Assembly: GCF_014695975.1 (NCBI RefSeq) | Contig: NZ_JACJPI010000067.1 | Span: 1 to 64,000, forward strand | Source of the DNA: Leptolyngbya sp. FACHB-321 | GTDB lineage: Bacteria; Cyanobacteriota; Cyanobacteriia; Leptolyngbyales; Leptolyngbyaceae | Direction of reading: 5' to 3' | Length of the DNA: 64,000 bases | In this document: positions 30,218 through 55,696 of the stretch, one piece after another | Position numbering within the stretch: the first letter of the stretch is position 1 | How the letters are laid out: each line of letters opens with the position of its first letter | Translations under genes and position numbers: made by a program | The notes under the pieces: model-generated | What the model was told of the DNA's origin: nothing | Seen by the model: the letters and a program-made list of their open reading frames with translations, nothing else | Databases searched by the model: none

Positions 30218-30288
30218 GGCGGCATGGCCAAGTGGTAAGGCAGGGGACTGCAAATCCCTTACCCCCAGTTCGAATCTGGGTGCCGCCT
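30218..30288 (+). tRNA. trnC: tRNA-Cys (GCA)
   Basis: A complete 71-base cloverleaf: acceptor GGCGGCA pairs with TGCCGCC (30281-30287), discriminator T, D-arm, anticodon stem AGGGGACTGCAAATCCCTT with anticodon GCA, and T-loop TTCGAAT. CCA is not encoded. The D-arm/anticodon part is the target of the detached CRISPR guide at 30672-30689, and a transposon end begins 8-19 bases after the gene, leaving the tRNA intact. Confidence 0.96.
30235..30255 (+). other. PAM and protospacer in tRNA-Cys for the homing guide
   Basis: GTA at 30235-30237 is followed by AGGCAGGGGACTGCAAA (30238-30254), which the guide at 30672-30689 matches at 16 of 17 positions (mismatch at position 10, A against T). GTN is the PAM known for type V-K systems. 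The distance from the PAM to the TGTACA ends (30296 and 30307) is 58 and 69 bases, bracketing the 60-66 bp reported for the characterised V-K transposon of Scytonema. Confidence 0.85.
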
Positions 30289-30295
30289 TCGTAAA

Positions 30296-30449
30296 TGTAC
30301 ATTTGCTGTACATTAAAGAATTATTCAGCAGTTTTAAAGAGTTCATTTCCAAAAATTGTTGAAACCTTGATTCTGTCGTTTGAGCGGCAGAATCTTTTGA
30401 TTAAACAGTTCTTATTACCCTAAAAACTAGCTTTAAAGAATTAATTTCC
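30296..30449 (+). repeat. CRISPR-side end of a Tn7-like (CAST) transposon
   Basis: TGTACA occurs at 30296-30301 and 30307-30312. TGTACA is the terminal hexamer of known V-K CASTs. Inward follow four related 17-mers: TTAAAGAATTATTCAGC (30313), TTAAAGAGTTCATTTCC (30334), TTAAACAGTTCTTATTA (30401) and TTAAAGAATTAATTTCC (30433), as expected for TnsB-binding sites. If the end is at 30307, the five bases TTTGC (30302-30306) would be the target duplication. No matching inverted end was found to the right within this window. Confidence 0.75.
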
Positions 30450-30589
30450 AGAAGTTCATGTACAGTCCACGTTACATGGCGCTAGTCGCTAGCGGTGTGA
30501 GAAGACTGAAGCAATATAGCAAGCTCCTAAAAGCAAGGTTAGCAGGAAACTGAAGATGTAAGTTAGTCAACCTCACTGGCTGCCACCAA

Positions 30590-30799: not shown

Positions 30800-31488
30800 C
30801 TTTCATTCCACCCCAAGCAAAATAGTCATTGCGGCTGTTTGAAGACCGTTGAGCGAGCGAAGGGAGGTACTCTTTCATTCTGCCCTAAGCCAAAACAGTC
30901 ATTGCAACAATGGACTGTCCACGCAACCAAAAAGACTTTTTAGCTCTTTCATTCTGCCCTAAGCCAAAACAGTCATTGCAACCATTCAGGCACGACTTGA
31001 GGGCAGGGGTGACACCGCTTTCATTCTGCCCTAAGCCAAAACAGTCATTGCAACATACGAAGTGGCTGGAAGGCATGGATGGTGAATTGCCTTTCATTCT
31101 GCCCTAAGCCAAAACAGTCATTGCAACCATTCAGGCACGACTTGAGGGCAGGGGTGACACCGCTTTCATTCTGCCCTAAGCCAAAACAGTCATTGCAACA
31201 ACGGGTGTAATGGGTGAGGATAAACGCAAGGGTAGCTTTCATTCTGCCCTAAGCCAAAACAGTCATTGCAACAGAACCGTTTGTTTGAGGCTCAGTGATT
31301 TCATTCACTTTCATTCTGCCCTAAGCCAAAACAGTCATTGCAACGCTTGTTCTGTGCCGTCTGAGTTAGTCATTCAAAACTTTCATTCTGCCCTAAGCCA
31401 AAACAGTCATTGCAACTTCAAAAAGGAGGGTGGAGCATCCACAACGTCAAGCTTTCATTCTGCCCTAAGCCAAAACAGTCATTGCAAC
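30800..31488 (-). CRISPR. CRISPR array, nine perfect 37-nt repeats plus one degenerate
   Basis: Perfect repeats start at 30872, 30946, 31018, 31091, 31163, 31236, 31308, 31380 and 31452; a degenerate one (36 nt, six or so changes) is at 30800-30835. In the minus sense the repeat begins GTTGCAATGACTG and ends GGGCAGAATGAAAG, as in type V arrays with spacers 3' of the repeat. Spacers are 35-37 nt. Spacers 30983-31017 and 31128-31162 are identical. The degenerate end is farthest from the effector and tracrRNA, marking it as the old, leader-distal side. Transcription is probably from the tracrRNA side, same strand as the effector. Confidence 0.97.
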
Positions 31489-31676
31489 CCCTTGGCATCA
31501 AGATTCCCAACTGGCAACAGTTTCAAGCCTGGTTTTGGCAAACCTCTGCTTCTGCCTCACTTTTACCTTTTAGGGAAAGGCTTTAGCAAATAGCAGCGCT
31601 TGTAGAACCTATAGCTAGCAGGGAATACAGGAATTTGGCAAACGTGCTAGGAGTATTACTCCCGCTTCGGTCTGCC
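31489..31676 (-). promoter_or_regulatory. Putative leader of the CRISPR array
   Basis: The spacer between the tracrRNA terminator and the first repeat. TTTGGCAAAC occurs at 31534-31543 and again at 31634-31643, exactly 100 bases apart. The plus-strand stretch GTTTCAAGCCTGGTTTTGGC (31521-31540) resembles the first 20 bases of the repeat in its array sense and so could act as an anti-repeat when transcribed on the minus strand. No gene. Confidence 0.4.
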
Positions 31677-32140: not shown

Positions 32141-34630
32141 TCACATTTGAGCAGAATTTAACGAATCGTAAGCTGTGATTGTAAGGTTTGCTGCCTGTTG
32201 AAACACATCTGTTTCAAACACAGTTTTTTGTCGAACGACTTCTATACCGTGCGTGGCGGCACAATCAATGATTGCTTGGCTTAAGCGGTTGTAATCCCAC
32301 TGATGCAGTTGCTTGCCATGTTCTTTGGTATATCGGTCCATTGCTTGCTTGTTGCCCTCACACTTAAGTTTGGCTCTGGCAATTAGCTGGCTATATAAGC
32401 GTTCTCGCCATCCATCTGTTACCGGGATGACGATCGTGCTGGCTTTGTGGGCCTGCGCTAATTCAACTACCCCTTTGGCAAACAAACGTGCTACCTGCTG
32501 ACCTAAGTCAGATTCAGTCTGGTAGTTATGTCGCTGTACTTGCTGATCGGTTTGGCGTTGTTTTGAGTGTTCCCGTCGTTGCCGAAAATATTTTTGGAGG
32601 AGCCTGTGACCTTCTGGTGAAACCTTAGGAGCACTGCGAAGGGTTAAACGCTTACGGCGCATCGCATCCACGACGGTCACGACAAGATGTTTGTCGAGAT
32701 CAAGGAGCACACCAACAAAGATGTTGGGGACACCTTCGTAAAGGGGGCGATCAGGACGCTCAAACGGTTTGGCAGCTTTGAGACAATCTAGTTTTGGGCG
32801 TGGTTTGGCAAGCTCTTCCTGAAGCTGCTGAATCTGCTTTTTCAGATTCCCAAGGCGTTTGAGTTGATCTTGGCTCTTGGAAGCTTCTGGTGCTGCTTGC
32901 TCTAACTTGTTCAGCAGGTCTTGCTTCTGTTCCAGCGTTGCCTGTTTCGCCTGCAACTGCTTTAACTGTGGCTCCAGCTTGCGCTGACGAATCTTTTCTA
33001 AACCCTGACGTGTCAGAGCCTCGGCATTAAAAGTCCAATGAATCGTGAGCGTGCATTCATGCCAGAACCCTTTTTCGCCGTACTGCTGAAAGATCTTGCA
33101 CTGGGAGCACAACTGGGCGTCTTTTTGCTCACTGGCTTTTATAGGCTTCCAGATCAGTTCAATGGAGCGGAGGAGCATAAAACTCCCTGTAAATTGATCC
33201 TTCTTTGAAGATTGAGCTTTCCTTTCAGAGTCGTTTTTGGTTTGCCAGTCCTTCAGAAAGGTTTTGATCAGCGACAACTGACGACGATGGCAACGCACCT
33301 CAAACAGCAAGTCACCCCAACCATTTAACTTGAAGAAAATCTTCCCCTTTTGATTCATCCACCAGGATCGGACACCATCGTAGCCAAAACTCATTGGATA
33401 GGGTAGAGCTTTGGGCTCTCTCAAGAAGTCATGTAGCTTTGGTGTGATTGACTCATGCCAAGCAAAGAAAGTAGCTTCAACTCTTTCTGCCTCAAGTTTT
33501 ATTGTTTGCAGTAGATAGAATCCAAATTGCAGATATTGCTGCTCAGAGGCAGCGTACAGCATGAAAGAATCAATTAAATCTAGATAGTAGTGAAGATCAC
33601 CTAATTTGCTCCACTGAAGTACCAGTGCTGCAAGTAAGTGCTGCTCAAGTTGAATATATTCGTTGGAATCAGAAAGGTAAAGCAAAAGTGAAAAATATAA
33701 AAAGTAATACCGCTCAAGTTCGGTTGCATCTGAGTTCGGCATAGCAATTACAGCTTCCAGATGGTGCTCAAACGCCTGCTTAGGAAAGAGATTTCTGGCT
33801 CTCGGAAGCTGTTCTAGAAGCTGCTTTTCCAAACGCTCTATTCCAACTCGCATTGCTTCCAAGCGCTCAGTAAGCGTTAGCGGCTGTGCAGGTTTGCTTT
33901 TACTCTTGCTCTTGCTCTTGCTCTTGCTCTTTCTAGGCTCCTTTACTTCTGCTTGAGGTTTGCCTCCGTTTTTGAGCAGATGAATAATGGCACGACGACT
34001 CAATACCTCTTCTGTTGCGTCAAATTGCTTGAATAGGAAATCGAAGGGTGGGCGATCGCCACTAGCATCAGTCAATTCATCTTTAGCTTCTAGTTCGGCG
34101 AGGATTTGTGCTGCTCTCTGCTCGATTTCCTGCTGGCTAAAATTACTGGTTTCAGCTAAAGCAGCATCACTTTCGACAACTGCTAACCAACGTCGTTTGC
34201 CCCCTATTCTCTGGATTAGCTTCCGGTGAGAAGTAAACCAGCTTTTGAAGATTTCTTCGACACGCTCAATAGCTGAGGTATAGAAGCGCCCAGACATCTT
34301 ACTAAATTGAGAAGTTCGTGCTAGAGCATCACACAATGTTTTGACTAGCCCCTTTGGCAACCAATTTTGCCTCTGCTTCGCTTCTGGTTCCTGAGTGGTT
34401 TCATCCTGCTTTTGAAGCTCCTGACTGATATGTATCCAATTGAGGAGCTTGTGATGCTGTTTGATCTGTTTAATGATCGTATCGACAAGCAGCGTATGTT
34501 TGTAGCCAAATTCACATACACAGCACCAGGCTGCTTCATCAAACGAGACCAAATCATCTATGGCTTTCTTGCTTTGCCGAGGCTTGCTAGTCCTGACTAT
34601 AGCGTCAGTTCTAATAGTCCGCATTGCCAT
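32141..34630 (-). CDS. cas12k: Cas12k-like effector, enlarged (type V-K-like CAST)
   Basis: 829 residues from the ATG at 34630 (AGGAG ten bases upstream; a TTG at 34651 would add seven). Several blocks match Cas12k as I remember it: GRFYTSAIERVEEIFKSWF, KRRWLAVVESDAALAE, RRAIIHLLKNGGK, CHRRQLSLIKTFLKDWQTK, RPLYEGVPNIFVGVLLDLDK, QTESDLGQQVARLFAKGVVE and HQWDYNRLSQAI. As in Cas12k the RuvC motifs lack acidic residues: leucine replaces Asp in VGVLL (about 640) and proline replaces Glu in IVIPV (about 735), so it should bind but not cut DNA. Unusual: a helical insert (about 300-393), a KS repeat (234-246), a CSQC...HEC cluster (about 508-526), and total length near 830 against about 640. Confidence 0.9.
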   Translation of the reverse strand: MAMRTIRTDAIVRTSKPRQSKKAIDDLVSFDEAAWCCVCEFGYKHTLLVDTIIKQIKQHHKLLNWIHISQELQKQDETTQEPEAKQRQNWLPKGLVKTLCDALARTSQFSKMSGRFYTSAIERVEEIFKSWFTSHRKLIQRIGGKRRWLAVVESDAALAETSNFSQQEIEQRAAQILAELEAKDELTDASGDRPPFDFLFKQFDATEEVLSRRAIIHLLKNGGKPQAEVKEPRKSKSKSKSKSKSKPAQPLTLTERLEAMRVGIERLEKQLLEQLPRARNLFPKQAFEHHLEAVIAMPNSDATELERYYFLYFSLLLYLSDSNEYIQLEQHLLAALVLQWSKLGDLHYYLDLIDSFMLYAASEQQYLQFGFYLLQTIKLEAERVEATFFAWHESITPKLHDFLREPKALPYPMSFGYDGVRSWWMNQKGKIFFKLNGWGDLLFEVRCHRRQLSLIKTFLKDWQTKNDSERKAQSSKKDQFTGSFMLLRSIELIWKPIKASEQKDAQLCSQCKIFQQYGEKGFWHECTLTIHWTFNAEALTRQGLEKIRQRKLEPQLKQLQAKQATLEQKQDLLNKLEQAAPEASKSQDQLKRLGNLKKQIQQLQEELAKPRPKLDCLKAAKPFERPDRPLYEGVPNIFVGVLLDLDKHLVVTVVDAMRRKRLTLRSAPKVSPEGHRLLQKYFRQRREHSKQRQTDQQVQRHNYQTESDLGQQVARLFAKGVVELAQAHKASTIVIPVTDGWRERLYSQLIARAKLKCEGNKQAMDRYTKEHGKQLHQWDYNRLSQAIIDCAATHGIEVVRQKTVFETDVFQQAANLTITAYDSLNSAQM

Positions 34631-34873
34631 GTTTGAATGACTCCTAAGCAAAGTGCAATAGTTAACGTTGTAAGAGGGGCGTAAAATGAATCAGCTTGTT
34701 ATTTAGCTCGTAGATTAAGTCATGCCACAACTGAGTGCGCCTGAATTAAGCATTAAAAACTGGGCATTCATGTACCAAATGAGTGCCTGAACCAGATTTG
34801 ATTTCTCAATTGCTTTAACTAACAGTTCTACGGCATAGACTCATGAGTCAAAACTGTTTCAAGCCAGCCATCT

Positions 34874-36299: not shown

Positions 36300-36986
36300 C
36301 TAGAACTTTTCCCAGACTTCAAGCGGGGCATACAAGTCATAGGCAAGCTGCTCCAAAGCTGCTTTTGCCTGCTCAACCACAGCATCGGGAAAGCCCTCCA
36401 GAAACGTGATGATGCTGCTATCCGCCTCAACCACGAACGTGATCCCCTCGCTTTCCACTTCCCAGGGATAACCCCTGCTAGCTCGGACCCGGTAGGACTG
36501 CGGGACGCGCTCCAGAGCTAAACGGCAGTCTGCCAGGGGGTGGACAATTAAACCCTCTGAATGACCCCGTGATCCCAACTCAGTAATCTGGAAAGGGACG
36601 GGGGCAGCAGACACCACCTTGGGCGCACGCATCACTTCACCCTGTTGTGTTGCCTGGAGCCGCAACCCTAACGTGGTCATTTCTTTGGCAACCCAGCGCA
36701 GCGAGCGGGCGATGCGTGTCCAATAAGGGGACAGGTCGCCCTGGTTGACTGTTGCTGCCCGTGCCTCCAGCAGTTGCGTGGTGGTTTGCATCGCTGCCTG
36801 TAGCAGCTTGCCCTGAAGATAGTCTGCTTCGCTAGCCTGTGCCAGTTCCCGCATCACCTGCTTGACCAGTTCCGTCAATGCCAGTTGCAGTACCAGATTG
36901 CTGTCATTGCCGCTGTCCGCACTTGCGACCAGGATACACACCACCTGTTGTAGGATAAACTCACGCTCGGAAATAACTTGTACCAT
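36300..36986 (-). CDS. Hypothetical protein, last gene of a four-gene accessory unit
   Basis: 228 residues from the ATG at 36986 (MVQVISEREFILQQ), five bases after the upstream stop; a longer frame from 37025 would overlap that gene. The N-terminal half is helical (LALTELVKQVMRELAQASEA), the C-terminal half mixed, with VHPLADCRLALERVPQSYRV and VVEADSSIITFLEGFPDA. No motif or membrane segment recognised. Tight spacing implies function with the PD-(D/E)xK-like protein upstream. Confidence 0.6.
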   Translation of the reverse strand: MVQVISEREFILQQVVCILVASADSGNDSNLVLQLALTELVKQVMRELAQASEADYLQGKLLQAAMQTTTQLLEARAATVNQGDLSPYWTRIARSLRWVAKEMTTLGLRLQATQQGEVMRAPKVVSAAPVPFQITELGSRGHSEGLIVHPLADCRLALERVPQSYRVRASRGYPWEVESEGITFVVEADSSIITFLEGFPDAVVEQAKAALEQLAYDLYAPLEVWEKF

Positions 36987-36991
36987 CAGCT

Positions 36992-37663
36992 TTAGACCTG
37001 TACTTCGGAAATCGCGCAATGCCACTGGTCACTGCTCAGGATCGTGGTTCCGACCAGTAGCCCTAACACTTTAGTCGGTGTATTGTCCAAGGCGTTGGCT
37101 GCTACCACAAAGGGGATAAAGCGTGGTAGTTCACTGTCAATCACGCGCTTGATGTCGTCTACCGTCTGCGCCGCCGTCGCTTTTGCTTCGCCCAAGTAGA
37201 GCGTCTGATCGGTGGGGTGAGCACAGACGGCATCCGGATAATCACCGATCGGTCTCGCTAACAGCCGACCGTGGTAGAGGGACTGCATCACCAAGCCTAG
37301 GCAGGCTTCACCGAGGGCAGCGGTGGCACTACGGTTGGGGCAGACGGTTTTATGTTCTGTACGGGCATAAAAGAGGGGTTGATGCCCTGGCAGCAGGAAC
37401 AGCCCGTAGCGCTGGTAGGCAAGCCACTGCGCCATTTCCTCCAGCGGGTAAAAGGCAGACTGTTCCGAATAACGCCGCACCAGGGCACGGATGGTATTGG
37501 GATGCACGGACCAGGACGGGAGGGGCGCATAGGGAGCCGCTAGTTGCTCCAGCCGTGTCAGCAGTTCGGGTTTCATGGCAGAACGGCTATAGGCAGCCTG
37601 GGCGAGCGCCCCGGTGATGCGGTCAATGGTGAGACAACGTTTTTCCAGGGAAATTTCAATCAC
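36992..37663 (-). CDS. PD-(D/E)xK-like nuclease candidate
   Basis: A 223-residue protein. Residues 115-165 hold E119 in a helix, D144 in YPDAVCAHP and E159-x-K161 in LYLGEAKAT, the spacing expected of a PD-(D/E)xK nuclease core; a helix (DDIKRVIDSEL) and a strand (FIPFVVAANAL) follow. The N-terminal domain (IEISLEKRCLTIDRITGALA ... IRALVRRYSEQ) is repeated as a stand-alone 73-residue gene at 38767-38988. The start is the ATG at 37663. Nuclease activity is inferred only. Part of a unit with the small genes at 37735-38351. Confidence 0.6.
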   Translation of the reverse strand: MIEISLEKRCLTIDRITGALAQAAYSRSAMKPELLTRLEQLAAPYAPLPSWSVHPNTIRALVRRYSEQSAFYPLEEMAQWLAYQRYGLFLLPGHQPLFYARTEHKTVCPNRSATAALGEACLGLVMQSLYHGRLLARPIGDYPDAVCAHPTDQTLYLGEAKATAAQTVDDIKRVIDSELPRFIPFVVAANALDNTPTKVLGLLVGTTILSSDQWHCAISEVQV

Positions 37664-37734
37664 AAAGCCACTGGGTTAAGTTCCGAGCTTCATCACCATA
37701 AAACAGCCCCCCTGTCGAAGGGAAATGGTTCCTA

Positions 37735-38052
37735 TCACGGTGAGGGGACTTGACCATTGCGTGGGGGTGAACAGATGTAAGCGACCAGTTCTAACGGCAC
37801 GCGCTCGTAGTGCTCCCAGATAAAATGCATCTCTGCCAGCTTGCGGCGGTGCCTGACTTCAGCCACACGGTGGTGCTTGCCGTGTGAGAACCAGCGGTCC
37901 ACTGATGCCTCACTCACACCACAGATCTGTGCGATTTGCGTATGTGTGACGCCCCAGCGAGCGTAGAACTCATGCGGGGTCATGCTGAACTGACAACCAC
38001 AGTAAAAGTGCAGCAGAGCAAGTTCGCGTCTGCCTAAGGCTTGCGGGGTCAT
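37735..38052 (-). CDS. HTH domain protein of cyanobacterial accessory loci
   Basis: 105 residues with a helix-turn-helix: FYARWGVTHTQIAQICGVSE then ASVDRWFSHGKHHR, followed by RRKLAEMHFIWEHYERVP. This small-protein type is common on cyanobacterial plasmids and islands. Its start overlaps the stop of the upstream gene (ATGA at 38049-38052), so the two are coupled. Probably a DNA-binding protein; targets unknown. Confidence 0.75.
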   Translation of the reverse strand: MTPQALGRRELALLHFYCGCQFSMTPHEFYARWGVTHTQIAQICGVSEASVDRWFSHGKHHRVAEVRHRRKLAEMHFIWEHYERVPLELVAYICSPPRNGQVPSP

Positions 38053-38351
38053 GCGGGTTGCTCCTGGGCTAAAGGGTCAGCCGGGTCAAGCGTGAAACGT
38101 TGCAGGTCGTCTTCCCAGACCAGGTCTGAGTCAGTCCAGGCACGACTGGGTGACTGGGGATCAAGCCAGATGGTGTAACGCCACCCCCAGCCCGGAAGGT
38201 GTGCCGCTGGTACGAACTGGAGTCCGACGATGATGCCGTAATCTTCAGTAGGCAGGGGGACAAAGCGGACGCGATCGCCCAGCTGAAACTTAGGAAGGGC
38301 AGAGGTTTGTGGGAATTCTTCTGGAAGGGCAAAGAAGGTTTCAGGAAGCAT
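38049..38351 (-). CDS. Conserved hypothetical protein paired with the HTH gene
   Basis: 100 residues with a beta-rich SH3-like look: FQLGDRVRFVPLPTEDYGII, WGWRYTIWLDPQSPSRAWTD, LVWEDDLQRF. It is the first gene of the unit and overlaps the HTH gene by four bases. I recall the two adjacent in other cyanobacterial islands but know no function. Confidence 0.7.
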   Translation of the reverse strand: MLPETFFALPEEFPQTSALPKFQLGDRVRFVPLPTEDYGIIVGLQFVPAAHLPGWGWRYTIWLDPQSPSRAWTDSDLVWEDDLQRFTLDPADPLAQEQPA

Positions 38352-38491
38352 ATACCTGTAAAAAGCTGCGCCAGAACTGTATCGCTAATATTATGGCACG
38401 ATCGCTCAATCGCACAAGTGCAATTTTGCACAAATGAGATCTTGTTAAATTGCCGTGTAACAATTAACCCCGAACTAAAACGGAAAGTCCT

Positions 38492-38662
38492 ATGGCAAAG
38501 GAGATAAGGGAGATTCGGGGCAGAGTTCCGAAAGACTTAAAGATTGCGTTTGAAGTTGCTTGCGTGCGAATGGAACTGACCCAAGCAGTGGCGTTGGAAG
38601 AGGCAATCAAGGATTGGTTGATCAAGAAGGGTTTTCCTACCAGTGATGATGGCAAACAGTGA
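38492..38662 (+). CDS. Small ribbon-helix-helix-like protein
   Basis: 56 residues (MAKEIREIRGRVPKDLKIAF ... AVALEEAIKDWLIKKGFP). The pattern strand (EIRGRVP), helix (KDLKIAFEVACVRM), turn, helix (LTQAVALEEAIKDWLIK) fits ribbon-helix-helix proteins such as CopG or ParG-like plasmid partition and copy regulators. It diverges from the 38351 gene across a 140-base promoter region, so it may regulate that unit. Confidence 0.65.
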   Translation: MAKEIREIRGRVPKDLKIAFEVACVRMELTQAVALEEAIKDWLIKKGFPTSDDGKQ

Positions 38663-38766
38663 TGAAGCGTGAGCACTTGTCGTGATGTTCACACACCCGG
38701 TTTGATACTGTTTCTGCCACACCACTACTGAGAAAGCTTTACTCTGGCAGTTTTCTACGTTATCGA

Positions 38767-38988
38767 CTATGCTGTTTTCCTCTCGTCTTCAGAATAGCGA
38801 TGGATCGACCAGCGTAAAGTCGCCTCATCGATTTTGAGAGAGCCAGCAGGCTCAAACAGCGCGGTTACCGCGATCGCACGGTCAAACTGTCGTCGTAGGG
38901 CGTGACGACTCGTGGCAGCTTTCGCCAGTGCTGCTTCTGTACGGGTCAATTGCAGTTGCCGTCGCTCTAGGGTGATTTCAATGGGCAT
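38767..38988 (-). CDS. Stand-alone copy of the N-terminal domain of the PD-(D/E)xK-like protein
   Basis: 73 residues (MPIEITLERRQLQLTRTEAA ... EATLRWSIHRYSEDERKTA). It aligns over its length with residues 1-70 of the 36992-37663 product (IEISLEKR.LTI.R...ALA.A..SR; IRALVRRYSE). It is either a paralogue that binds the same partner or a remnant of a second nuclease gene. Confidence 0.6.
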   Translation of the reverse strand: MPIEITLERRQLQLTRTEAALAKAATSRHALRRQFDRAIAVTALFEPAGSLKIDEATLRWSIHRYSEDERKTA

Positions 38989-39214
38989 CGTCAGTGGTAG
39001 GCAAACAGGACTGTTCTCACCCTACGTGCTGGCATTTCAATCCGGCAAGCAATCCCTGTTACGGTGACAAGTGCAGACTGGCACTGGCATCAGGGCGGCA
39101 ATCGCCTCAGTTGATGTGGACGTTGACGTTGTGAGTGAAAGGTGGCAGCAAGAGCCTGGAGCGAAAGATGTGTCCCCTTGCTGTGTCGGTGCTATGATGG
39201 TCAGCAACAATTGA

Positions 39215-39253
39215 AAAAAGCCGCTGCCACGATTTATGGGGGAGCGGCTTTTT
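39215..39253. terminator. Terminator-like hairpin upstream of 39278 gene
   Basis: AAAAAGCCGCT (39215-39225) pairs perfectly with AGCGGCTTTTT (39243-39253) around a 17-base loop. A-rich and T-rich ends allow termination in both directions; it may also act as an attenuator for the following gene. Confidence 0.6.
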
Positions 39254-39277
39254 GTCTTTAAAAGGAAGACACTACTG

Positions 39278-39895
39278 ATGCTCAAGCATTTGACTCCAGC
39301 GCAAACCCAAGCACTGCACAAAGTCGTTACGTCGGTTGATTACCAAAGCCTCTTTGCCTACCACAGCTACCGCTTAGAAGTGCTGGCTCAAGGCTCTTGG
39401 ATGATCGCCAAAGCGATCCACACATTGGTAGGCGGTGAACTGTACCAGGTCGCCTTCCGGCTGAACGACACGTGCAGGACTATCTTTATCCATGCAGCTG
39501 TGAAGTTAGACCAAGACACGTTTATTGATGGGCTGGGTCTACACACCACTGAACAACTGGTGGAGCCATGGTTGGATCTATACACCAGTGAACAACTGCT
39601 GGAGCTATGGTCGCACCTGCAATCGCTGGAAGATGGCTGTCTCACCATCGAGCCGCTGTTCTTTCTACCCGACCAAGTGGAGGACAATGCGGCGGTGGTG
39701 AAGCAACTCGTGTGGACCATCGAACAACAACTACGGCTACAGTGGGACGTGGGAGCCGTCGATCGCCTCAGACGGCAGCTCAATTGGGAATCAGCCAAGC
39801 AGGCATTCGAAATCGCGGAGTTCTATCGATCGCTGCACGAACAGTTGGATAAGGAACATGCTTTACCGTACAGCGCTTGGGAGGCTTTTGACTGA
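39278..39895 (+). CDS. Hypothetical protein with tandem internal repeat
   Basis: 205 residues from the ATG at 39278 (MLKHLTPAQTQALHK), with AAGGAAG upstream; the earlier in-frame start at 39236 lies in the hairpin. It contains a short duplication, LGLHTTEQLVEPWLDLYTSE then QLLELW. The rest is helical and acidic. No family recognised. Confidence 0.55.
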   Translation: MLKHLTPAQTQALHKVVTSVDYQSLFAYHSYRLEVLAQGSWMIAKAIHTLVGGELYQVAFRLNDTCRTIFIHAAVKLDQDTFIDGLGLHTTEQLVEPWLDLYTSEQLLELWSHLQSLEDGCLTIEPLFFLPDQVEDNAAVVKQLVWTIEQQLRLQWDVGAVDRLRRQLNWESAKQAFEIAEFYRSLHEQLDKEHALPYSAWEAFD

Positions 39896-40277
39896 ACGCC
39901 TGGGGCAGGCTCGCCGCTTGTGGTGCCCCTGCCCTGCCAGCTAGCCATGCACTGTCTTCTGCCTGGTTTAGCCTTGACGCAGTGACTGACCAGGAGCAAT
40001 GGACGTACTCGCCACTCATGACCGTCCTCTCCCAACCAAAGGGATTGACCCGAAACGAACTGATGCAAGCCTCCAACGGCACCCTCACCGAGGAGCCAGT
40101 GAGACGACCGACCGAAAAGCTCATCTGCAAGCGCCAAGTTTAGTGTTGTTCAGATGAGGCAGAGAAGTGACAGACGTTAACGATCGCCAGCGTCAGACTG
40201 AGAACTGCTACTTTCCTTACAAGAGTTTTGCTCATAGATGAATCGGGTGGTGTCCCTCATTGGGGCACGCTAAAGCC
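39896..40277. other. Intergenic region, nothing recognised
   Basis: Minus-strand frames here lack recognisable protein character. The decayed CRISPR-like cluster follows at 40278. Confidence 0.35.
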
Positions 40278-40454
40278 TGTATTCATCAAGCCATCTAGGA
40301 CACATAGTGCAACAAGGTGTGCAAGTCCGATTGGTGTCTGGTCAAAGCTTCAACAGAGCCGCGCCCAGAAGGTTCAGTGCAACTGGGATCGGCGACCGGG
40401 GCTAAGTTCCTGTTCGCCCTTCAACGGAGCCACACCTGCTAGAGGCGGTGCAAC
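40278..40454 (-). CRISPR. Decayed CRISPR-like mini-array of a different repeat type
   Basis: Two 36-base units at 40348-40383 and 40419-40454, read on the minus strand, start GTTGCAC and end GGCTC.GTTGAAG; they agree at about 24 of 36 positions and are separated by 35 bases. A third weaker unit ends at 40313 (GTGCAAC on plus) with a 34-base gap. Unit and spacing fit a CRISPR array, and GTTGCA...GTTGAA(A)G ends are common to cyanobacterial repeats including V-K ones. Divergence between copies suggests an inactive relic. Confidence 0.45.
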
Positions 40455-40730: not shown

Positions 40731-40838
40731 TATCCGCCACATCCGTCACAATTCCGCTATATAAGGGTTCTAGCCATCACGCATCCGTCACGCATCCGTC
40801 ACAGATGCCTTTTATCCGTCACACTTTGGCGATTTCAC
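40731..40838. repeat. ATCCGTCAC iterons
   Basis: At least four exact ATCCGTCAC copies plus near matches (ATCCGCCAC, CCATCACGC) lie within about 100 bases, some head to tail (GCATCCGTCACGCATCCGTC). Such clusters occur at plasmid replication origins and as transposase or repressor sites. No replication gene is adjacent. Confidence 0.6.
40807..40838. repeat. 32-bp direct repeat, left copy
   Basis: Identical to 41767-41798 over 32 bases (beginning GCCTTTTATCCGTCACAC). The copies are 960 bases apart and bracket two small genes. Confidence 0.9.
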
Positions 40839-41766: not shown

Positions 41767-41798
41767 GCCTTTTATCCGTCACACTTTGGCGATTTCAC
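41767..41798. repeat. 32-bp direct repeat, right copy
   Basis: Second copy of 40807-40838. It carries one ATCCGTCAC motif and sits just after the stop of the HNH gene. Confidence 0.9.
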
Positions 41799-41816: not shown

Positions 41817-42716
41817 TCATGCCTCTTCCTTTCTCTGTCTGTTCGCTTCCATTAACTGCCTAAGTTGGTCAATCTCATAAGGAGGTGTTTCCCTGTGTAG
41901 CATGGCATGACAGTTAGAACAGACAGGGATTAGGTCTTTAACAGGATCGACTTCATACGTTGCACCTATTTCAGATAAAGGAACGCGATGATGGACGTGG
42001 ATGTAACCCTCACCAACCTTGCCGTAAAACTTCTCAAAGTTAAAATCGCAGACGCTACAAGTTAACCCGTAGTGAGCTATGCAAGCTTTACGGGCTTCTG
42101 GGCTACGTTCATAGGCATTGACTAGAACCTGTTTGACCGCACCTTCAGAATATGTCTGAGCATCAGGAACTTCATTAGGGTAAGTGAGTTCAGCTAGCGG
42201 AATATCCCTTTGCTGTTCAGACCGAAGCGCTGATACCGCTTCAAGCGGAGGTAAAAATTCATCAAGCTTTAAGGCAGAGTCCTCATCAAGTTCTCTAACA
42301 CCTCGTAGGGTCTGTTGATCCAAATGACCGGGGGAAACAAACGCAAGAGGTTTTAGCTTCTCTCCACTCCTGAACTTAAGACTTTCAGTTACGTCTAAAG
42401 GTATTTCACGTTTGAAATCCATCGTCGTAGCTTCTGATGCAAGTATGTGTTCACCTGCGTCCCATAACTCATAAATGTCACAATTTAGTATGCTGGCAGC
42501 TTTAGACATCTCACAGATTCTATCGACCTTGAGCTTTCCGCATAGGTAAAGCTTGCCTTGAACCACTGTGGCGACGTAAATCACATCGTCCTTACTGACG
42601 TTCCGTTTGCGAAACATATTCCCTGCAATATGGTCTAGTAAGTCGTTACCAGTACCACTGGCTCTGCTCCACCCCCAAGTTTTATTAGTCCAGTAATGTG
42701 TGAAATATCTAGGCAT
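41817..42716 (-). CDS. HNH endonuclease with EVE-like N-terminal domain
   Basis: 299 residues. The C-terminal 90 form an HNH nuclease: LTCSVCDFNFEKFYG, HVHHRVPLSEIG, LIPVCSNCHAMLHR with four zinc-binding cysteines. The N-terminal part (YFTHYWTNKTWGWSRASGTG ... DVIYVATVVQGKLYLCGKL) resembles EVE/PUA-like modified-base readers. Such fusions act as type IV, modification-dependent restriction enzymes. It has no partner methylase. The start ATG at 42716 is well placed. The restriction role is inferred from architecture. Confidence 0.75.
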   Translation of the reverse strand: MPRYFTHYWTNKTWGWSRASGTGNDLLDHIAGNMFRKRNVSKDDVIYVATVVQGKLYLCGKLKVDRICEMSKAASILNCDIYELWDAGEHILASEATTMDFKREIPLDVTESLKFRSGEKLKPLAFVSPGHLDQQTLRGVRELDEDSALKLDEFLPPLEAVSALRSEQQRDIPLAELTYPNEVPDAQTYSEGAVKQVLVNAYERSPEARKACIAHYGLTCSVCDFNFEKFYGKVGEGYIHVHHRVPLSEIGATYEVDPVKDLIPVCSNCHAMLHRETPPYEIDQLRQLMEANRQRKEEA

Positions 42717-53670: not shown

Positions 53671-55383
53671 CTAATCTCGCCACTCTGGCACTTGCTGATC
53701 ATGCTTCAGTCTTACCTGTTGCAGCAGGATGGCGGTAAAGCAATCGTCCAGACTGGGCGCATCCGCCATCGACAACAATCCCGGCAAGCTAGCACAGGCT
53801 TCCTGTGTAAACCGTACAGGCAGTAAGGGGTTGAGCGCCTGGAGATACGCTGCCTGCCACCAGCCTTGCACCCGGTTTTGAGCGGACTGCAACCTGGCAG
53901 CACTGGGAAGGCGATCACGCTTCTGGCGTTGATTCACTGTCCGGTCAGACGGCAGTAAGTTCCACAGATCATCACACGCCCAGGCGGACCAGGGAAAGCA
54001 ATGGTCAATATCTAAAGAGCGCTCGGTTAGACGTTTGCCACTCCAGACACAGAACAGGTCTTGTGAGCCTAGCAAGGCGATCGCGCGTTGCCGTGCTGTA
54101 GTGACATCACGGCTAGGGTCAGACCAGGTCAGCGCTAAGGCAATGTCTGCTTCGTTTAGCGATCGTCCTTGTCCACTGGCATAGCTTTTCATCAGTCGTA
54201 CCCATTCAGCCAGCAATGCGGGTTCAATCCAAACCTCAAAGTGCAGTAAGGCTAACCAGATGTGTTGCGGGATGAGCAAGTGCCCGAAGCTGGCAAGATA
54301 GGCTGGATCGATCACAAGCTCAGTTGGTGTGGGTAAACGGGCTGAGCGTGTAGCTTTAAGTAACTGGCTGCCACCAGGGTCAGTCATGTAGTGGACAGGC
54401 ATCGTTGTGATTGTCTTCACGGCTTCCTTCAGTGCCTGATGTAAGGCTTGAGCCGTTGTCCCTGCAAAGCGCGACCCGATCCGCAGATCCAGGTGAGAAA
54501 CACCACTGAGCGCCCGAAAGCCTGCTCCAGCAAACCCTAACCCCTGTATGCCCCGATTCGTGGGGCTTTGCGGTAGGTCTGCTTGTAGGAGCGGCTTAAA
54601 CAAGCGCAACCAGTAAAGGGCAACCAAACCCAAAGGCACGCTGACAGAGGCATCATCCTGGTACTGCGCGGTGCCAGCCGTACTATCTGCGATCCGGCAT
54701 AGGACTCGTAGCAGCGCCAACTTGTAGGTAGACGACTTGGAGTCATGCAAAATGACATGTCGTAGCAGGGGCAAAGCACCCGTGCCGTCATCGGGTAAGG
54801 TGAGTGCCATCTGCGTCCAGGCAACTTCGTCTCGGTCCAGCCGATCGCGGTCTACTACTTTGCGAACAACCGTGGCTCCATGATCCTGTGCCAAGCGTTC
54901 GATTTCTTCCCATGACACCACGTACAACTCACGATCGTTATCTGCGGCTCCATGCCGTAGCGTGATTGCCAGCAGTCCACCTGGTTTCAGCAGAGTAATC
55001 ACTTTACGGAACGCTCGTGTGCGTTCTGCGGGTGGCAGATGCATCCAGACAGCACTGACAAGGATAAAGTCGAACGCCATACCCAAACGCTGTACGTGTT
55101 GAAGCGCTGGGAGGCGATCGTCCAACCAACAAATGTTGGCATCAGGATGGAGTTGCTGTCCTGCTGCCCGCATCGCCACCGCTGGTTCTACAGCCACTAC
55201 CGTATGTCCCTGCGCCGCTAACCAAGCGGCATCCCGACCACTACCAGCCCCAATGTCCAACACTAGCCTGGGACGATCCGGGAGCAGTCCCAGTAGCCAA
55301 CCATGCAATGCTTCTGCCTTCAGGCTCTCATAGGCAGGGATGACGGTCGCTGCATTTTGCTCATACCACTGGACTGCCTTCAC
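53671..55383 (-). CDS. SAM-dependent methyltransferase-HNH nuclease fusion
   Basis: 570 residues. The first 200 form a class I methyltransferase: motif I VLDIGAGSGRDAAWL, then VVAVEPA, and LPALQHVQRLGMAFDFILVS with LLKPGGLLAITLR. The middle is uncharacterised and helical. The C-terminal third has an HNH motif: FCVWSGKRLTERSLDIDHCF, then LWNLLPSDRTVNQRQKRDRL. The enzyme resembles small-molecule-type methyltransferases more than DNA methylases, so the substrate is uncertain. Fusion to HNH points to a self/non-self or RNA/DNA-targeting role; defence is plausible but unproven. Start ATG at 55383. Confidence 0.8.
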   Translation of the reverse strand: MKAVQWYEQNAATVIPAYESLKAEALHGWLLGLLPDRPRLVLDIGAGSGRDAAWLAAQGHTVVAVEPAVAMRAAGQQLHPDANICWLDDRLPALQHVQRLGMAFDFILVSAVWMHLPPAERTRAFRKVITLLKPGGLLAITLRHGAADNDRELYVVSWEEIERLAQDHGATVVRKVVDRDRLDRDEVAWTQMALTLPDDGTGALPLLRHVILHDSKSSTYKLALLRVLCRIADSTAGTAQYQDDASVSVPLGLVALYWLRLFKPLLQADLPQSPTNRGIQGLGFAGAGFRALSGVSHLDLRIGSRFAGTTAQALHQALKEAVKTITTMPVHYMTDPGGSQLLKATRSARLPTPTELVIDPAYLASFGHLLIPQHIWLALLHFEVWIEPALLAEWVRLMKSYASGQGRSLNEADIALALTWSDPSRDVTTARQRAIALLGSQDLFCVWSGKRLTERSLDIDHCFPWSAWACDDLWNLLPSDRTVNQRQKRDRLPSAARLQSAQNRVQGWWQAAYLQALNPLLPVRFTQEACASLPGLLSMADAPSLDDCFTAILLQQVRLKHDQQVPEWRD

Positions 55384-55525
55384 ACCTGGATCACCTCAAG
55401 CGGCTGGCTAACTGCATGGAACGGTTGTCATCCGGTTAAAAGTTCTTTTATCACCCTAGCATTGGCAGTGAGGAAAATAGAGACCACAAGTCGTTTTTGG
55501 AGGTAGCAGCAGGTTTACTGCCATG

Positions 55526-55572
55526 GAAAAGCCCCTGGGCGTCTGTCCGTGTTTCGACTCCAGGGGCTTTTC
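55526..55572. terminator. Bidirectional terminator-like hairpin
   Basis: Perfect 12-base arms GAAAAGCCCCTG (55526-55537) and CAGGGGCTTTTC (55561-55572) with a 23-base loop between divergent genes. Nothing else is seen in 55384-55696. Confidence 0.6.
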
Positions 55573-55696
55573 AGTGCTAGGCAACTCCTCACATCCATGA
55601 GGATAGCGCTCTTCCCTTTGCCTGTCTACTGCACCAAAGTGTTGTTATACCGGAGGAAGCATCCGCATCGATCAGCCCAAAGCTGGCAGGACAGAC

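What the first reader, a model, noticed from the sequence alone, without database searches (positions are those of the whole stretch)
36300..38988. Compact unit around a PD-(D/E)xK-like protein with a duplicated N-terminal domain
Four tightly spaced minus-strand genes (SH3-like, HTH, PD-(D/E)xK-like, helical partner) face a ribbon-helix-helix gene, and the first domain of the nuclease candidate reappears alone at 38767. Duplicated domain plus nuclease plus regulators looks like a defence or immunity-type module not known to me.
Basis: inference. Interest (0 to 1): 0.55.

Follow-up and report, generated by a model that had tools for sequence, protein, structure and literature searches.

The report
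Transposon-carried nuclease cassette in cyanobacteria
A four-gene cassette in a cyanobacterium pairs a new family of predicted DNA-cutting enzymes and its partner with two small regulator genes that also sit beside several different virus-defence systems, and it rides as cargo on RNA-guided transposons.

Summary
The four genes exist as described. The 223-aa protein is a predicted PD-(D/E)XK nuclease: AlphaFold pLDDT 87, a core like LHK-Exo, Hjc and ACE1, and E119/D144/E159/K161 kept in 10 of 11 aligned rows. Its partner, helical then TBP-like, follows it in all 14 loci where sequence allows a look. A 90.7%-identical copy lies elsewhere in the genome (dN/dS 0.05 for the nuclease). The lone "first domain" at 38767 is not a module part: it is the 5' stump of a second, diverged nuclease gene, cut at a mosaic joint (38789-38792). 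The unit lies 1.65 kb from cas12k in a decayed V-K CAST at tRNA-Cys. It is also cargo of an apparently complete V-K CAST in Stenomitos frigidus and of a damaged one in FACHB-471. The SH3-HTH pair is portable: behind it lie the nuclease pair (7 of 33 loci), GmrSD (3), a 212-aa protein plus HNH (4) or uncharacterised modules (9), and on plasmids it stands behind cas1-cas2 (3 of 8 records). Best reading: a CAST-borne, regulated candidate anti-MGE nuclease module, led by a defence-associated regulator pair that works like BrxR/CapW. No activity was tested.

The parts
36300..37025 (-). HEL partner, 241 aa: N-terminal helices, C-terminal (135-234) TBP/helix-grip-like domain; relatives suggest the true start is M14 (about 36986)
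   Evidence: alignments A2/A4; AF2 pLDDT 80, pTM 0.51; best Z 6.7 to TBP, a middling value; dN/dS 0.16
36992..37663 (-). Predicted PD-(D/E)XK nuclease, 223 aa; N-terminal domain about 1-65, core about 110-223; E119, D144, E159, K161
37735..38052 (-). HTH regulator, 105 aa; similar HTH genes stand beside cas12k in other CASTs
38049..38351 (-). SH3-like leader protein, 100 aa, overlapping the HTH gene by 4 bases
38352..38491 (.). Divergent promoter/operator region between SH3 and RHH genes (inferred)
   Evidence: arrangement only; alignment of four intergenic regions showed no clear operator
38492..38662 (+). Ribbon-helix-helix protein, 56 aa, divergent from the unit; 98% identical in S. frigidus
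38767..38988 (-). Truncated 5' part (about 67 codons) of a second, C75-type nuclease gene; a remnant, not a module part
38789..38792 (.). Mosaic joint: left side matches S. frigidus CAST cargo, right side matches contig C75
39236..39895 (+). ORF that stands divergent from the C75-type nuclease on C75; carried over with the remnant; dN/dS 0.78
32141..34651 (-). Cas12k, 836 aa, of the V-K CAST in which the unit lies
   Evidence: NF038191 E 6.2e-117; 81% to a S. frigidus Cas12k
30800..31489 (-). V-K CRISPR array (strand as for cas12k, inferred)
   Evidence: aligned with the S. frigidus array
30218..30288 (+). tRNA-Cys(gca), attachment site of the CAST (inferred)
   Evidence: same tRNA beside the CASTs of S. 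frigidus and FACHB-471

Best explanation
A two-protein nuclease module with its own regulators, carried as cargo by type V-K CASTs and found in other islands of Leptolyngbyaceae-type cyanobacteria. Mechanism: (1) the small SH3-like and HTH proteins, with the divergent RHH protein where present, hold the operon's promoter low (inferred from gene order and small size). (2) On entry of foreign DNA or another stress signal they release it (inferred). (3) The 223-aa protein cuts nucleic acid with a PD-(D/E)XK active site (fold and residues predicted here; activity inferred). (4) HEL binds the nuclease and/or DNA to direct or restrain it (pairing shown; role inferred). (5) The effect is interference with phages, plasmids or competing transposons, to the benefit of host and transposon (inferred from company kept).
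For: Nuclease: AF2 pLDDT 87, pTM 0.84; helix 111-128, strands 133-136, 145-148, 155-163, helix 168-192, two strands. The upper VIA-align rows are mostly PD-(D/E)XK-type folds: LHK-Exo Z 6.6, Hjc 6.5, SPARDA nuclease 6.2, ACE1 6.1; Foldseek's best is ACE1, E 2.5e-3. E119 kept in 11 of 11 rows, D144/E159/K161 in 10 of 11. Pairing: HEL directly follows the nuclease in 13 loci by sequence, plus G232 outside the family by profile (E 9e-8); a fifteenth contig (FACHB-36) ends too soon. Purifying selection. CAST cargo: Cas12k; tRNA-Cys, array and unit all match S. frigidus; tnsB and tnsC (Mu-transpos_C 3.4e-12, TniB 4.6e-9) and tniQ (50% to a Pfam-supported TniQ) open there; unit between a truncated tnsB-like gene and cas12k in FACHB-471. 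Leader pair is portable: pair confirmed in 31 of 33 loci. GmrSD_N 4e-24 and HNH 7e-10 behind it; cas1-cas2 before it on three plasmids; DrmD downstream on one; Cas10d after the HNH form in Myxacorys. Other nuclease loci: beside I-E cas genes and a GmrSD protein (C75), PLD_Helicase/caspase matches (C82), DpdA (two loci).
Against: No PADLOC, Pfam, NCBIfam or PHROGs match for the nuclease or HEL at the limits used, so no tested defence relative. Structural scores are middling, within what unrelated folds can give (note), and Foldseek has no match at E 0.001 or better. The S. frigidus copy has lost D144, E159 and K161 while the gene stays open, so activity is not always kept. 10 of 33 SH3 loci show no recognised module and 9 more lead to genes of unknown function. 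3 of 8 plasmid records show no annotated defence gene in the stretch viewed. Only 2 of 12 nuclease hits lie within 50 kb of Cas12k. Narrow range: 7 of 42 genomes of the order, 3 of 386 across the phylum. Mobile cargo and defence genes cluster anyway, so neighbours cannot prove function; no control set of random cargo genes was scanned.
Confidence: 0.55

Rival explanations
1. Toxin-antitoxin-like maintenance cassette: the nuclease is a toxin, HEL or a regulator is its antidote, and the cassette keeps the transposon or island in the cell.
For: Compact pair with small DNA-binding proteins on transposons and islands; RHH proteins are common antitoxins (recalled; one search gives only a weak RelB/DinJ match, 12.6 bits against a cut-off of 45.65).
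Against: The RHH gene is divergent and was found by similarity in only 8 of 33 SH3 loci. HEL is as large as the nuclease and has its own predicted fold. The leader pair also stands beside CRISPR adaptation genes, which are not toxins.
Confidence: 0.2
2. Transposition accessory: a TnsA-like nuclease that lets the V-K CAST, which lacks TnsA, cut out cleanly.
For: PD-(D/E)XK fold; three copies in V-K CASTs; Myxacorys has the pair just before a TniQ/TnsD gene.
Against: In the S. frigidus CAST the unit lies about 30 kb from tnsB-tnsC-tniQ and 40 kb from cas12k and its active site is lost. Two of the three loci in this genome (C75, C82) showed no CAST genes in the stretches searched. TnsA was not among the 50 structures listed.
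Confidence: 0.07
3. Genomic-island gene with a DNA repair or recombination role (Hjc/LHK-Exo-like), not defence.
For: Closest folds include Holliday junction resolvases and a phage-type exonuclease; integrase-like and ParB-like genes (by eye) near some loci.
Against: No recombination partner was noticed next to the pair (by eye; not searched for); the leader pair is shared with restriction and CRISPR genes.
Confidence: 0.1

Closest known systems
BrxR / CapW WYL-domain regulators (PMC9122601, passages read; PMC9122588, abstract start in listing)
   Same: A small regulator shared by many unrelated defence operons; WYL is an Sm/SH3-type fold (passage in PMC9122601) and BrxR also has an HTH.
   Different: Here SH3-like and HTH are two separate small proteins with no WYL match; ligand and binding site unknown.
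CapK/CapS regulator pair (PMC13373217, abstract and outline read)
   Same: A gene pair upstream of diverse immune operons.
   Different: Kinase and STAS-like repressor there; neither was matched here.
CvkR, Arc_1 and Arc_2 regulators of V-K CASTs (PMC9938897, passages read)
   Same: Small HTH or RHH proteins encoded by V-K CASTs; an HTH similar to the one here (37-41% over 58-88 aa) stands beside cas12k in 12 of the loci searched.
   Different: Here the SH3-HTH pair heads cargo operons and was found away from cas12k too. Homology to Alr3614 itself was not tested.
PD-(D/E)XK nucleases LHK-Exo, Hjc and Cas4-family ACE1
   Same: Predicted core fold and acid-acid-x-K site.
   Different: No sequence match to any solved chain at E 1; no conserved cysteines or QxxxY motif; extra N-terminal domain and constant HEL neighbour.
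Tn7-like transposon defence cargo (PMC8649781, passages read)
   Same: Cargo of Tn7-like transposons is enriched in restriction and other defence systems; that paper expects unknown ones among the rest.
   Different: The passages read do not describe this pair or the SH3-HTH leader.

Membership tests
PD-(D/E)XK nuclease superfamily | alpha-beta-beta-beta-alpha-beta core | tested here: met
   Element order from residue 111 on in the AF2 model; upper rows mostly this fold, though Z is middling
PD-(D/E)XK nuclease superfamily | Acidic residue plus (D/E)xK in the core, conserved in relatives | tested here: met
   E119 11 of 11; D144, E159, K161 10 of 11; exception S. frigidus
PD-(D/E)XK nuclease superfamily | Metal-dependent nuclease activity | not testable with these tools
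   needs the purified protein
Cas4 / ACE1 | Four cysteines for an Fe-S cluster | tested here: not met
   None of the five cysteines of the window protein is conserved across 11 rows; the feature itself is recalled
Cas4 / RecB | QxxxY motif after the ExK strand | tested here: not met
   0 of 10 rows that have ExK show QxxxY/H after it; the eleventh has no ExK; motif recalled
TnsA | Encoded directly with tnsB-tnsC | tested here: not met
   About 30 kb away in S. frigidus
TnsA | TnsA fold | tested here: inconclusive
   Not among 50 listed structures
Type V-K CAST (the carrier in this window) | Cas12k and CRISPR array beside a tRNA gene | tested here: met
Type V-K CAST (the carrier in this window) | tnsB, tnsC, tniQ present | tested here: not met
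   None found in window or rest of contig C64 with the S. frigidus and related proteins at E 1e-5, and no TniB on C64: a decayed element
Known defence system in PADLOC | Match of nuclease or HEL to a model | tested here: not met
   0 families at E 0.1
WYL/BrxR regulators | WYL domain | tested here: not met
   No Pfam match for the SH3-like protein at E 1

The most novel reading that the evidence does not exclude
The SH3-HTH pair (sometimes with a divergent RHH gene) is a new cyanobacterial class of defence-operon regulator, a two-gene counterpart of BrxR/CapW. It is shared by V-K CAST cargo, type III and I-D CRISPR-Cas loci, a DrmD-bearing island, GmrSD and HNH restriction-type genes, and a new PD-(D/E)XK-HEL nuclease system, so that finding the pair predicts new defence effectors behind it.
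Probability: 0.35. Interest if true: 0.75.

Novelty: new variant of a known kind. Interest (0 to 1): 0.55.

Why it matters
If right, a small, easily recognised gene pair marks defence operons across filamentous cyanobacteria and points directly at untested effectors, the nuclease pair here first of all. It would also show that V-K CASTs carry cargo nucleases under a regulator related to the one beside cas12k, so transposon and cargo might be switched together, which a binding experiment can test.

Tried and rejected
Rejected: (a) 38767 as a free-standing immunity domain: truncated second gene at a mosaic joint. An assembly error at the joint cannot be excluded, since reads are not held. (b) Cas4/RecB family: motifs absent. 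(c) TnsA replacement: placement and a lost active site. (d) Phage or plasmid gene: no relatives of the nuclease in viral contigs (pattern scan), plasmids or phages at the limits used. (e) 39236-39895 as a module member: dN/dS 0.78, and next to the nuclease family only here and on C75 among the loci searched. (f) A homing spacer against tRNA-Cys in the window's array: no exact match of 11 bases, whereas S. frigidus has one of 18; FACHB-471 showed none either. (g) Solved-structure relatives of the nuclease by sequence: none at E 1.

Led nowhere: the intergenic alignment gave no clear shared operator. The literature searches listed no paper that, from title and start of abstract, describes this pair or the SH3-HTH leader (one search found no paper at all); only five papers were opened, and only in the parts named.

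Rows dropped or weak: G035 was counted as a nuclease hit (8 of 42) but fell out (7 of 42; stop-filled match). Fragments in G029:C77 and G031:C44 were not counted as loci. The frameshifted Phormidesmis copy was left out of the alignments. One search took 31 loci of the order (neighbouring hits on one contig together) plus FACHB-471 and FACHB-886; left out of the 44 hits were the weak ones of G004, G014, G029:C73 and G036:C70 and two stronger ones, G018:C1:3283591 and G037:C461 (the latter has a GmrSD-like ORF by eye). Of the 33, contig C5 had no open SH3 frame and G040:C237 no HTH. One plasmid record (NIES-3755 plasmid3) has the length of G019:C4 and is probably the same molecule, so it is counted in both sets. 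PADLOC queries among neighbours were picked by eye. Nothing was measured on how often random cargo genes have defence neighbours.
Full report
What is there. HTH and SH3 genes overlap by 4 bases; nuclease and partner ORFs overlap as called, though relatives suggest that the partner starts about 39 bases later.

The genes look real and constrained. A second copy on contig C82 is 90.7% identical over 1,963 bases, window 36317-38279, and the identity stops near both ends of the unit; that contig itself ends about 300 bases further on. Between the two copies dN/dS is 0.05 for the nuclease, 0.08 for HTH, 0.16 for the partner and 0.36 for SH3. The RHH protein is 98% identical in S. frigidus at a synonymous distance of 1.1.

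The nuclease. With 11 sequences AlphaFold2 gives pLDDT 87 and pTM 0.84. Residues 111-222 run helix, three strands, helix, two strands, with E119 in the first helix, D144 just before the second strand and E159/K161 in the third. Structure comparison ranks PD-(D/E)XK-type folds highest: LHK-Exo Z 6.6 (102 residues, 3.2 A), Hjc 6.5, SPARDA nuclease 6.2, ACE1 6.1; a few other proteins stand among them. Foldseek's best match is ACE1 of Chroococcidiopsis at E 2.5e-3, with none at 0.001 or better. These scores are middling. The residue pattern is the stronger evidence: E119 in 11 of 11 rows, D144, E159 and K161 in 10 of 11. The exception, S. frigidus, has lost three of the four but keeps an open, 66%-identical gene. 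Conserved cysteines and a QxxxY motif, recalled marks of Cas4 and RecB enzymes, are absent.

The partner. HEL follows the nuclease in 13 loci by sequence and in G232, outside the family, by profile comparison (E 9e-8). In Leptolyngbya sp. FACHB-36 the contig ends just after the nuclease. The partner in Phormidesmis is cut short. Its model is weaker (pLDDT 80, pTM 0.51). Residues 135-234 resemble TBP and helix-grip folds at Z up to 6.7, which may be only a common arrangement.

The lone domain. 38767-38988 resembles the nuclease's first domain (E 1e-10; score 97 against a largest shuffle of 63). It is much closer to the start of a 230-aa nuclease on contig C75 (90% over 68 aa), and DNA similarity to C75 (89%) runs from 38789 to 40302 and no further left. 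The 60 bases 38733-38792 match S. frigidus cargo instead (87%), and the sequences switch within 4 bases. So the stump is part of a broken gene at a mosaic joint. Two other nuclease genes are damaged in this part: Myxacorys lacks its first 70 codons or so, and Phormidesmis is frameshifted near codon 40.

The carrier. 32141-34651 is Cas12k (E 6.2e-117), with a CRISPR array at 30800-31489 and tRNA-Cys at 30218-30288. S. frigidus carries an 81%-identical Cas12k with array and tRNA-Cys in the same order. On the same contig lie open genes for tnsB (681 aa, Mu-transpos_C 3.4e-12), tnsC (294 aa, TniB 4.6e-9) and tniQ (202 aa; no Pfam match at 0.01, but 50% identical to a protein with a TniQ match). 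From tnsB to tRNA-Cys is some 77 kb, and the unit lies between them at about C80:173.1-175.5k. That this is one complete element is inferred from the order; its ends were only read by eye, and the same contig bears a second Cas12k at 226.6-228.4k. FACHB-471 (L026) has the unit between a truncated tnsB-like gene (rve 9e-4) and cas12k, with the same tRNA-Cys beyond. In the window no tnsB, tnsC or tniQ was found on the contig, so this CAST is decayed. Across 42 genomes of the order, all 7 with the nuclease have Cas12k, against 14 of the other 35 (Fisher p 0.009); for SH3 it is 16 of 18 against 5 of 24 (p 2.5e-5) (genomes are related, so p is only a guide). By locus, however, only 2 of 12 nuclease hits lie within 50 kb of Cas12k on the same contig (0.5 expected); many contigs are short.

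The leader pair. An SH3 profile hits 18 of 42 genomes of the order and 22 of 386 across the phylum. 10 of 44 hits of the order lie within 50 kb of Cas12k, 1.5 expected at random. tniQ or tnsC lie within 8 kb in two more of them (L163, L165) and within 1 kb in two phylum loci (L172, L173). Of 33 loci classified, HTH follows SH3 in 31 and a divergent RHH gene is detected in 8. Behind the pair lie: nuclease-HEL 7; GmrSD-like 3; a 212-aa protein plus HNH 4; three sets of genes of unknown function 4, 2 and 3; nothing recognised 10. Two phylum loci also have GmrSD (L170, L179). GmrSD_N scores 4e-24 and 1.4e-21 and HNH 7e-10 in Pfam. On plasmids 8 records match: cas1-cas2 stand before the pair in three, directly in one and with one small gene between in two; DrmD follows three genes later in one; an ATPase or helicase with PDC-M16A matches follows in that one and one more; three show no annotated defence gene in the stretch viewed. 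The pair was confirmed by profile in 7 of the 8. In Myxacorys a Cas10d of type I-D stands about 800 bases after the HNH gene.

Other neighbours of the nuclease. C75: I-E cas genes and a GmrSD protein (1.5e-30); C82: a protein with PLD_Helicase and DrmD matches and one with a caspase match. Phormidesmis and Myxacorys: DpdA, with a DndB-like protein in the first. These proteins were picked by eye for the scan, so the counts are not an unbiased survey; several picked proteins had no match.

How it most likely works. Supported by computation: predicted fold and active-site pattern, constant pairing, purifying selection, CAST cargo status, portable leader pair. Inferred: that the leader pair represses the operon, that the nuclease cuts invading nucleic acid, and that HEL guides or restrains it. 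Regulators shared by many defence operons are known (BrxR, PMC9122601 passages; CapW, PMC9122588 abstract start; CapK/CapS, PMC13373217 abstract and outline; RptR, PMC12255303 abstract and outline). V-K CASTs are known to carry small HTH or RHH regulators beside cas12k, and restriction systems are frequent in their cargo (PMC9938897 passages); Tn7-like cargo in general is rich in defence genes (PMC8649781 passages). The pair described here works like the first group; it is not filed as a member of any of these families.

Verdict. New variant of a known kind; defence role probable but untested.

Noticed in passing
window 32141-34651: This Cas12k is 836 aa, about 200 longer than the 629-position model; relatives of 58-81% identity occur in G019, G023 and G034.
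   Followed up: partly
window 30290-30450: Beside tRNA-Cys, TGTACA-like sequence and two copies of TTTAAAGARTTMATTTCC (30333, 30432; mean 0.2 matches expected), unlike the S. frigidus end; no copy within 3 mismatches elsewhere on the contig, so the other transposon end was not found.
   Followed up: partly
window 40807-40838 and 41767-41798: Perfect 32-base direct repeats 960 bases apart flank two small unknown ORFs.
   Followed up: no
window 39531-39608: Tandem duplication of 39 bases (85%) inside the ORF 39236-39895.
   Followed up: no
L023 10001-10678 (S. frigidus): Full-length nuclease with three of four active-site residues replaced, in the one apparently complete CAST.
   Followed up: partly
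L031 9849-13123 (Myxacorys): Three 23-base repeats, perhaps a transposon end, abut a nuclease gene lacking its first 70 codons or so; HEL is followed at once by a TniQ/TnsD gene, then (by eye) queuosine-type genes and a DpdA.
   Followed up: partly
L150 2234-3287, L151 1901-2950: A 212-aa protein (phrog_4652, E 1.8e-8) plus HNH behind SH3-HTH, next to Cas10d in one genome and cas12k in another: a second candidate module.
   Followed up: partly
window 41817-42716 and 53671-55383: Further candidates: an HNH-type protein with a type IV restriction match and a protein with a mad2 match.
   Followed up: no
window 55523-55598: Cyano-1 sRNA (Rfam RF01701, 45.6 bits).
   Followed up: no
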